Assembly: GCA_032433765.1 (NCBI GenBank)
Contig: JAVIAB010000025.1
Location: forward strand, 34,768,282 to 34,832,281
Length of the DNA: 64,000 bases
Direction: 5' to 3'
DNA from: Megaustenia siamemsis
Lineage: Eukaryota; Mollusca; Gastropoda; Stylommatophora; Ariophantidae
The translations under genes and the position numbers were made by a program. How positions within the stretch are numbered: position 1 is the stretch's first letter; the number at the start of each line of letters is the position of its first letter. Shown here one piece after another: positions 4,374-38,410 of the stretch. Under the pieces are notes generated by a model. The model saw only the letters and a program-made list of their open reading frames with translations. It searched no databases and had not been told where the DNA came from.

Positions 4374-4489
4374 CTAGTTTAACCTACTATTCTCTCCACT
4401 AACTGTGTTGCTTTCATCTTGTTCTGTTGGTGTCTGCTCAACTACAAAAATAGAATTCACGGGTTCCCCATTAACAAGTGATGTTCCTC
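4374..4489 (-). CDS. Ig gene exon 5 (C-terminal tail)
   Basis: The acceptor tttgtctttaacag precedes position 4489 with a good pyrimidine tract. The first two bases complete the glycine codon left by exon 4. The exon then encodes [18 protein letters not shown] and a Thr/Glu/Ser-rich tail, ending at TAG (4376-4374). It is rich in Glu, Ser and Thr and lacks a hydrophobic anchor, so the model is secreted. A weak donor (AG before gttaaa, just ahead of the stop) would allow splicing to further exons at lower coordinates, so the C-terminus is the least certain part of the model. Confidence 0.7.

Positions 4490-38410: not shown

What the first reader, a model, noticed from the sequence alone, without database searches (positions are those of the whole stretch)
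4374..38410. A five-exon Ig-domain gene hidden among satellites
Five short minus-strand exons with GT/AG borders join in matching phases (1, 2, 0, 1) to give a signal peptide, an Ig-type domain with S-D-H-G-F-Y-T-C and a short tail. No exon exceeds 139 nt, so ORF-based calling misses it. Agreement of four independent phase joins is hard to get by chance. The combination (single V-like Ig domain split over three exons, extra Cys78, Phe instead of Trp in the C strand) is not one I can place in a named family. It may be related to invertebrate immune-type Ig proteins.
Basis: partly seen in the sequence, partly recalled or inferred. Interest (0 to 1): 0.9.

Follow-up and report, generated by a model that had tools for sequence, protein, structure and literature searches.

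The report
Fast-diversifying single-Ig secreted protein gene
The five small exons are a real animal gene for a secreted one-domain immunoglobulin-like protein, one of a cluster of related genes whose loop regions differ far more than the rest, the pattern expected of recognition molecules.

Summary
Shuffled DNA held a comparable chain in 0 of 400 (strict) and 6 of 1000 (relaxed) windows. The window's own 2.59-Gb genome decides: exon 1 lies in 10 places including this one, each with ATG and donor; four close paralogs keep the borders of exons 3 and 4 and the acceptor of exon 5, and three of them exon 2. 31 exon-4-like loci, 21 at E <= 0.1, lie in two ~1-Mb blocks of one contig. In four copies 66 of 98 residue changes fall in 49 of 127 codons, placed where CDR-like loops should be. 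Exon 3 is 2.2-3.2 times more divergent than its own flanks in 7 of 10 pairs. Cys78 is private to this copy, and its tail is shifted by a 23-nt deletion. No fibrinogen or C-type lectin match lies on the contig (the latter capped), which speaks against FREP/CREP. Best reading: a secreted, diversified recognition family, probably immune. Expression and function are untested.

The parts
38365..38410 (-). exon 1: start codon and leader [15 protein letters not shown], donor GTAAGT, leaves phase 1
   Evidence: 10 of 10 genomic matches, this one included, keep ATG and a GTAAGT or GTGAGT donor
33474..33591 (-). exon 2: strands A-B and BC loop, first Cys (C37), phase 1 in, 2 out
   Evidence: exon found with corresponding borders in copies A, C, D and four distant copies
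24768..24897 (-). exon 3: C'-C''-D region, most variable exon, phase 2 in, 0 out
   Evidence: same borders in copies A, B, C, D; GC 0.41 against 0.26 in flanks, residue make-up in the top 0.7% of 1045 overlapping stop-free stretches
9081..9219 (-). exon 4: E-F-G strands with SDHGFYTC (C121) and FG loop, phase 0 in, 1 out
   Evidence: borders conserved in copies A-D
4374..4489 (-). exon 5: polar tail and stop; 23 nt shorter than in copies A-D, so the last residues are in a shifted frame
3822..3841 (-). ATTAAA polyadenylation-like signals; a signal lies at about the corresponding offset in copies A, C, D, not in B
4042..4301 (.). SINE-like insertion in the 3' region with target duplication ATACAGTTAGA read by eye; missing from copies A-D
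   Evidence: sequence; alignments
24586..24752 (.). 41/42-bp satellite next to the exon 3 donor, present beside exon 3 in 5 of 5 copies
25165..29585 (.). 39-bp satellite upstream of exon 3, present in 5 of 5 copies
33625..33754 (.). TGTC-type microsatellite upstream of exon 2; 4-bp arrays at this side in 4 of 4 copies examined

Best explanation
The five exons are one member (W) of a clustered, duplicated family of genes for small secreted proteins with a leader, one V-like Ig domain split over exons 2-4, and a short polar tail. Shown here by sequence: the family, its exon borders, its clustering, and the concentration of change in exon 3 and in the stretches after each conserved Cys. Inferred: secretion, the Ig fold, and that the loops bind variable targets. 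Most likely mechanism (inferred): whole genes duplicate in satellite-rich DNA, framework residues are kept, and the loop regions, above all the separate exon 3, diverge quickly and may be exchanged between copies, so that the animal carries a germline set of soluble recognition molecules, probably of humoral immunity.
For: Paralogous exons with conserved splice sites; exon 1 in 10 places including W, with ATG and donor; 31 exon-4-like loci on contig C25, 21 of them at E <= 0.1 in at least one of two searches, all between 34.08-35.14 and 49.44-50.51 Mb (recounted). No stop in W, A, C, D over 381 nt of exons 2-4, where neutral simulation gives 5.4, P = 0.0035. 66 of 98 residue changes in 49 of 127 codons outlined as loops. 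Exon 3 exceeds its own flanks in 7 of 10 pairs at p < 0.005. Omega over exons 2-4 is 1.12-1.70 in 6 of 6 pairs. Pfam ig and V-set match 4 of 4 members at E <= 1.
Against: No expression or binding data. Omega > 1 is not significant (one-sided p 0.061 for all codons, 0.059 for loops), single-exon values fall below 1 in some pairs (exon 3 W-A 0.56, W-B 0.52), and the loops were outlined after seeing the alignment. The four copies tested for stops are those with exons 2-4 all found; copy B (1-nt deletion in exon 4) and the C151 copy (two stops in exon 4) were left out, which favours the result. In 35 of 36 pairs exons 1, 2, 4, 5 do not differ from their flanks at p < 0.01, as relaxed constraint would also give. 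The pairs are not independent: A and B share almost the same exon 3. Only the part around exon 4 reaches Pfam; exons 2 and 3 alone match nothing, and an artificial chain without exon 3 scores better (V-set 20.6, Ig_2 17.4) than the chain with it (18.7, 14.7). Silent change is also raised in the loops (dS 0.232 against 0.091), which point mutation with selection alone does not explain.
Confidence: 0.55

Rival explanations
1. The same diversified secreted family, but serving mating, gamete or self recognition rather than immunity.
For: Rapidly changing secreted multigene families are also typical of reproduction (general knowledge); no call here tells the tissue of expression.
Against: V-type Ig domains are a known part of snail immune proteins (PMC7588048, passages); no direct test here.
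Confidence: 0.2
2. The family is real but the window's copy is decaying: the deletion alters its tail and the near-flank divergence shows loss of constraint.
For: Tail shifted against 4 of 4 close paralogs; exons 1, 2, 4, 5 near flank divergence; copies B and C151 are damaged.
Against: W keeps a full 182-aa frame with GT/AG borders; no stop in W, A, C, D, P = 0.0035 under neutrality, with the copies chosen as said.
Confidence: 0.15
3. The gene runs on past exon 5 to a lectin domain (FREP, CREP or GREP), exon 5 being internal.
For: A G|GTATTG donor-like sequence lies in exon 5 of copies A-D.
Against: Read in its own phase, exon 5 has the same stop in 4 of 4 close paralogs; 0 of 99 fibrinogen matches and 0 of 30 C-type lectin matches on C25 (in the second 150 of 199 candidates were scored). 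Galectin did not complete, and tails of distant members were not examined.
Confidence: 0.06
4. Chance assembly of open stretches by the reader.
Against: Paralogs reproduce the exons and their borders.
Confidence: 0.01

Closest known systems
VIgL proteins of snails (FREP, CREP, GREP)
   Same: Signal peptide, V-type IgSF domain, multigene and diversified (PMC7588048 and PMC9334734, passages). The FREP3.2 IgSF1 peptide YITLILHNPTQFDAR at residues 101-115 lines up by eye with [14 protein letters not shown] at 103-116 here.
   Different: No lectin domain found, stop after a short tail, one Ig domain; no fibrinogen-domain match on the same contig.
Free-standing IgSF genes of Biomphalaria pfeifferi
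   Same: IgSF genes without a lectin domain, named in PMC10075465 (passages).
   Different: Only named in the passages seen; no sequence was at hand to compare.
Sp185/333 (SpTransformer) genes of the sea urchin
   Same: Clustered, fast-diversifying immune family; short tandem repeats surround the genes and are proposed to drive duplication and deletion (PMC5103432, abstract).
   Different: Two exons (PMC3091723, abstract start in the listing); no Ig domain as I recall. A likeness of organisation, not a member.
Polymeric immunoglobulin receptor / secretory component
   Same: Best solved-structure match of the four-member profile, E 9e-4 for the whole chain, around the E-F strands.
   Different: Vertebrate receptor with several Ig domains; the best stretch covers 25 positions and no stretch passes on its own.

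Membership tests
Immunoglobulin superfamily (V-like) | D-x-G-x-Y-x-C motif and an upstream Cys | tested here: met
   C37, C121 and D-H-G-F-Y-T-C in W. D, G, Y, C invariant in the 9 exon-4 peptides aligned, of 12 loci at hand; left out were B (frameshift), C151 (stops, motif broken) and L027 (near copy of L025). Upstream Cys invariant in the 7 exon-2 peptides aligned, of 8 loci
Immunoglobulin superfamily (V-like) | curated Pfam score | tested here: inconclusive
   exon 4 alone passes PF00047 (22.7 against 21.8); the full chain (20.4) and V-set (17.9 against 26) do not
Immunoglobulin superfamily (V-like) | beta-sandwich fold | not testable with these tools
[quoted passage not shown]
   the leader was judged by eye, no predictor was run
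[quoted passage not shown]
   0 of 99 fibrinogen and 0 of 30 C-type lectin matches on C25 (150 of 199 candidates scored in the second); stop shared by 4 of 4 close paralogs; galectin not answered
Molluscan defence molecule | multiple Ig-like domains (PMC11999971, passage) | tested here: not met
   one Ig domain before the stop
Sp185/333 genes | homologous sequence | not tested
   compared for organisation only

The most novel reading that the evidence does not exclude
A germline repertoire of single V-domain recognition proteins in an invertebrate, in which the CDR2-like region is a separate exon held between satellites and exchanged between genes as a cassette (copies A and B: exon 3 differs at 1 of 130 sites while its flanks differ at 23 of 368, p = 0.008 in one of ten pairs).
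Probability: 0.25. Interest if true: 0.9.

Novelty: new variant of a known kind. Interest (0 to 1): 0.7.

Why it matters
Invertebrates lack rearranging antibodies, and how they keep a varied set of soluble recognition proteins is an open question. A cluster of one-domain V-like genes with the most variable region on its own exon would be a simple, testable case: five exons, many copies, mostly one contig. Short exons in satellite DNA may explain why such genes are easy to miss.

Tried and rejected
Protein searches of the product gave no relative at E <= 1 (26 candidates) nor at E <= 10 with a wider length range (159 candidates); viral contigs gave none. A 55-nt filler for exon 3 with stronger splice scores (22824-22878) was dropped because the paralogs keep 24768-24897. 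NCBIfam gave nothing; Rfam and tRNA scans gave nothing in the window. Flank comparisons: local alignment made introns look very conserved; 1.4-kb flanks gave an excess for exon 3 in W-C and W-D only; forced global alignment gave more replacement than intron change at p < 0.05 in 4 of 6 pairs and none for silent change; the filtered comparison is the one I rely on. dN above dS was not significant. Protein 8 carried a typing slip at its first letters and is not used. Literature searches for a described family of this kind; I saw the listings, and passages of PMC7588048, PMC10075465, PMC9334734, PMC11999971, PMC10875847 and PMC12074976. None that I saw describes one; only open-licence papers are held.

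Full report
Check of the observation. On the minus strand the exons 38365-38410, 33474-33591, 24768-24897, 9081-9219 and 4374-4489 are present with GT/AG borders and join in phases 1, 2, 0, 1 to 549 nt and 182 aa. SDHGFYTC occurs once, at 9151-9174, and my six-frame scan found no other D-x-[AG]-x-Y-x-C. Pfam's ig family matches exon 4 alone at 22.7 bits (cut-off 21.8) and the whole product at 20.4; V-set gives 17.9 for the product against 26. Exons 2 and 3 alone match nothing. Adding exon 3 to exon 4 does not help (ig 21.7, V-set 19.3 against 19.2), and an artificial chain of exons 2 and 4 without exon 3 scores better (V-set 20.6, Ig_2 17.4) than the chain of all three (18.7, 14.7). So the profiles support exon 4 well, exon 2 slightly and exon 3 not at all.

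Chance. With thresholds set near the observed values, 0 of 400 dinucleotide shuffles, and neither the plus strand nor the reversed sequence, held such a chain. With looser thresholds 6 of 1000 shuffles did and 31 of 1000 held an exon-4-like exon. Thresholds were chosen after the exons were known. Exon 3 stands out otherwise: GC 0.41 against 0.26 in its flanks, and residue make-up in the top 0.7% of 1045 overlapping stop-free stretches; the same test gave 4.7% for exon 5, 14.8% for exon 2, 43% for exon 4 and 78% for exon 1.

The genome settles it. The window is C25:34,768,282-34,832,281 of a 2.59-Gb assembly. Searching the product there gave 31 matches. Five close copies can be laid out: W (window), A (34.67-34.69 Mb, minus), B (34.88-34.92, minus), C (34.32-34.35, plus) and D (49.43-49.47, minus). 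A DNA search with exon 1 found 10 places, W included, each with an ATG, a hydrophobic leader and a phase-1 donor GTAAGT or GTGAGT. Exon 2 in A, C, D and exons 3 and 4 in A, B, C, D have the same borders, and exon 5 in A-D the same acceptor; this includes the odd GAAG acceptor of exon 2 and the GTTTGATC donor of exon 3. Four distant copies keep exon 2 borders of the same kind. In one of them (49.69 Mb) a candidate exon 3 of 115 nt with the right phases lies between exons 2 and 4 behind a similar intron end; its protein similarity alone is weak (best E for W 0.54 and C 0.21).

Family size. Merging the exon-4 matches gives 31 loci on C25, 21 of them with E <= 0.1 in at least one search, in two blocks of about 1 Mb, 34.08-35.14 and 49.44-50.51 Mb. 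Outside C25 there are a C151 locus (two stops) and a weak C100 match with one stop (E 0.73). The ten weak loci on C25 (E 0.16-6.41) fall in the same two blocks, though C25 is 2% of the assembly. The tool calls its counts lower bounds; a third query did not complete. That each locus is a whole gene was checked only for the close copies.

What differs between copies. Exon 3 of W has Cys78; A, B, C and D lack a Cys at that place, D having one elsewhere. Exon 5 of W lacks 23 nt that A-D have between two CAAGATG-like repeats; read in its phase, exon 5 of A-D ends in GIVDKMK(A/V)T and one shared stop, while W runs in a shifted frame to SRLN. The SINE-like insertion at 4042-4301 is missing from A-D. 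Copy B has a 1-nt deletion in exon 4, and its exon 2 was not found in the 20 kb fetched of about 26 kb between its exons 1 and 3.

Selection. Over 127 codons of exons 2-4 in W, A, C, D no stop occurs, where neutral simulation gives 5.4 and P(0) = 0.0035; the damaged B and C151 copies were left out of that test. Omega over exons 2-4 is 1.12-1.70 in 6 of 6 pairs, single exons ranging from below 1 (exon 3 W-A 0.56) to above 3. A parsimony count of 112.7 replacement against 20.3 silent changes is not significant (p = 0.061; loops 0.059). 66 of 98 residue changes fall in 49 codons that I outlined as BC, C'C'' and FG loops after seeing the alignment (permutation p <= 0.00005). Exon 3 differs more than its own flanks in 7 of 10 pairs at p < 0.005, by 2.2-3.2 times (for example D against W 28/130 and 34/449); W-A and W-B do not, and A-B goes the other way (1/130 against 23/368, p = 0.008); the pairs are not independent. 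For exons 1, 2, 4, 5 one of 36 pairs reaches p < 0.01 (exon 4, A-C). Silent change is also higher in the loops (0.232 against 0.091), which hints at exchange of older segments rather than point mutation alone.

Satellites. Exon 3 lies between the same 41-42-bp and 39-bp satellites in 5 of 5 copies, with very different lengths (42-bp array of 2.6 to 36 units, some cut by locus ends), and exon 2 lies between 4-bp and 5-bp-type repeats in 4 of 4. The sea-urchin Sp185/333 genes are likewise surrounded by short tandem repeats proposed to drive duplication and deletion (PMC5103432, abstract). That is a likeness of organisation only.

What it is not. The assembly gave 99 fibrinogen-domain matches (47 on C26 and 9 on C155 by my count of the listing) and 30 C-type-lectin matches, with 150 of 199 candidates scored; none is on C25. 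With the shared stop this speaks against FREP or CREP; galectin did not complete. Passages of PMC10075465 name free-standing IgSF genes in a planorbid snail, the nearest named category that I saw.

Organism. Not known. Of the 120 listed relatives of a retrotransposon frame in the window few bear an organism's name: a bin labelled Ekhidna sp. (45% identity), the land snail Bradybaena similaris (49% over 58% of the query) and a barnacle (35%). I infer a gastropod with low to moderate confidence. A hemocyanin test did not complete.

How it most likely works (inference). A leader sends a single V-like domain of about 130 residues out of the cell; the C37-C121 pair would close the sandwich, and the loops in exons 2, 3 and 4 would form the variable face. 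In W the unpaired C78 could allow covalent dimers. Duplication of whole genes in satellite-rich DNA supplies copies and the loop regions diverge. Immune recognition is the likeliest use (about 0.5), reproduction or self recognition next (about 0.2).

Noticed in passing
G000 contigs C26 (about 7.0-7.2 and 15.4-17.8 Mb), C24 and C155: Clusters of fibrinogen-domain matches; 99 to PF00147 in the genome, 47 of them on C26 by my count of the listing.
   Followed up: no
G000 contigs C8, C46, C73, C154: Several weak C-type lectin matches sit in unusually long open frames of about 1100-1330 aa, perhaps a mobile element with such a domain.
   Followed up: no
window 9952-13698 (+), 18156-20294 (-), 39580-40808 (-): Retrotransposon-like frames with reverse transcriptase and, in two, RNase H-like parts, in introns or upstream of the gene (the second confirmed by precomputed domains of its relatives, the others by eye).
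   Followed up: partly
L016, end of exon 5 of copy B: A stretch of about 75 bp at the end of exon 5 recurs several times in tandem in copy B.
   Followed up: no
G000:C25:34834387 and 34717623: Further exon-4-like loci outside the window on either side.
   Followed up: no
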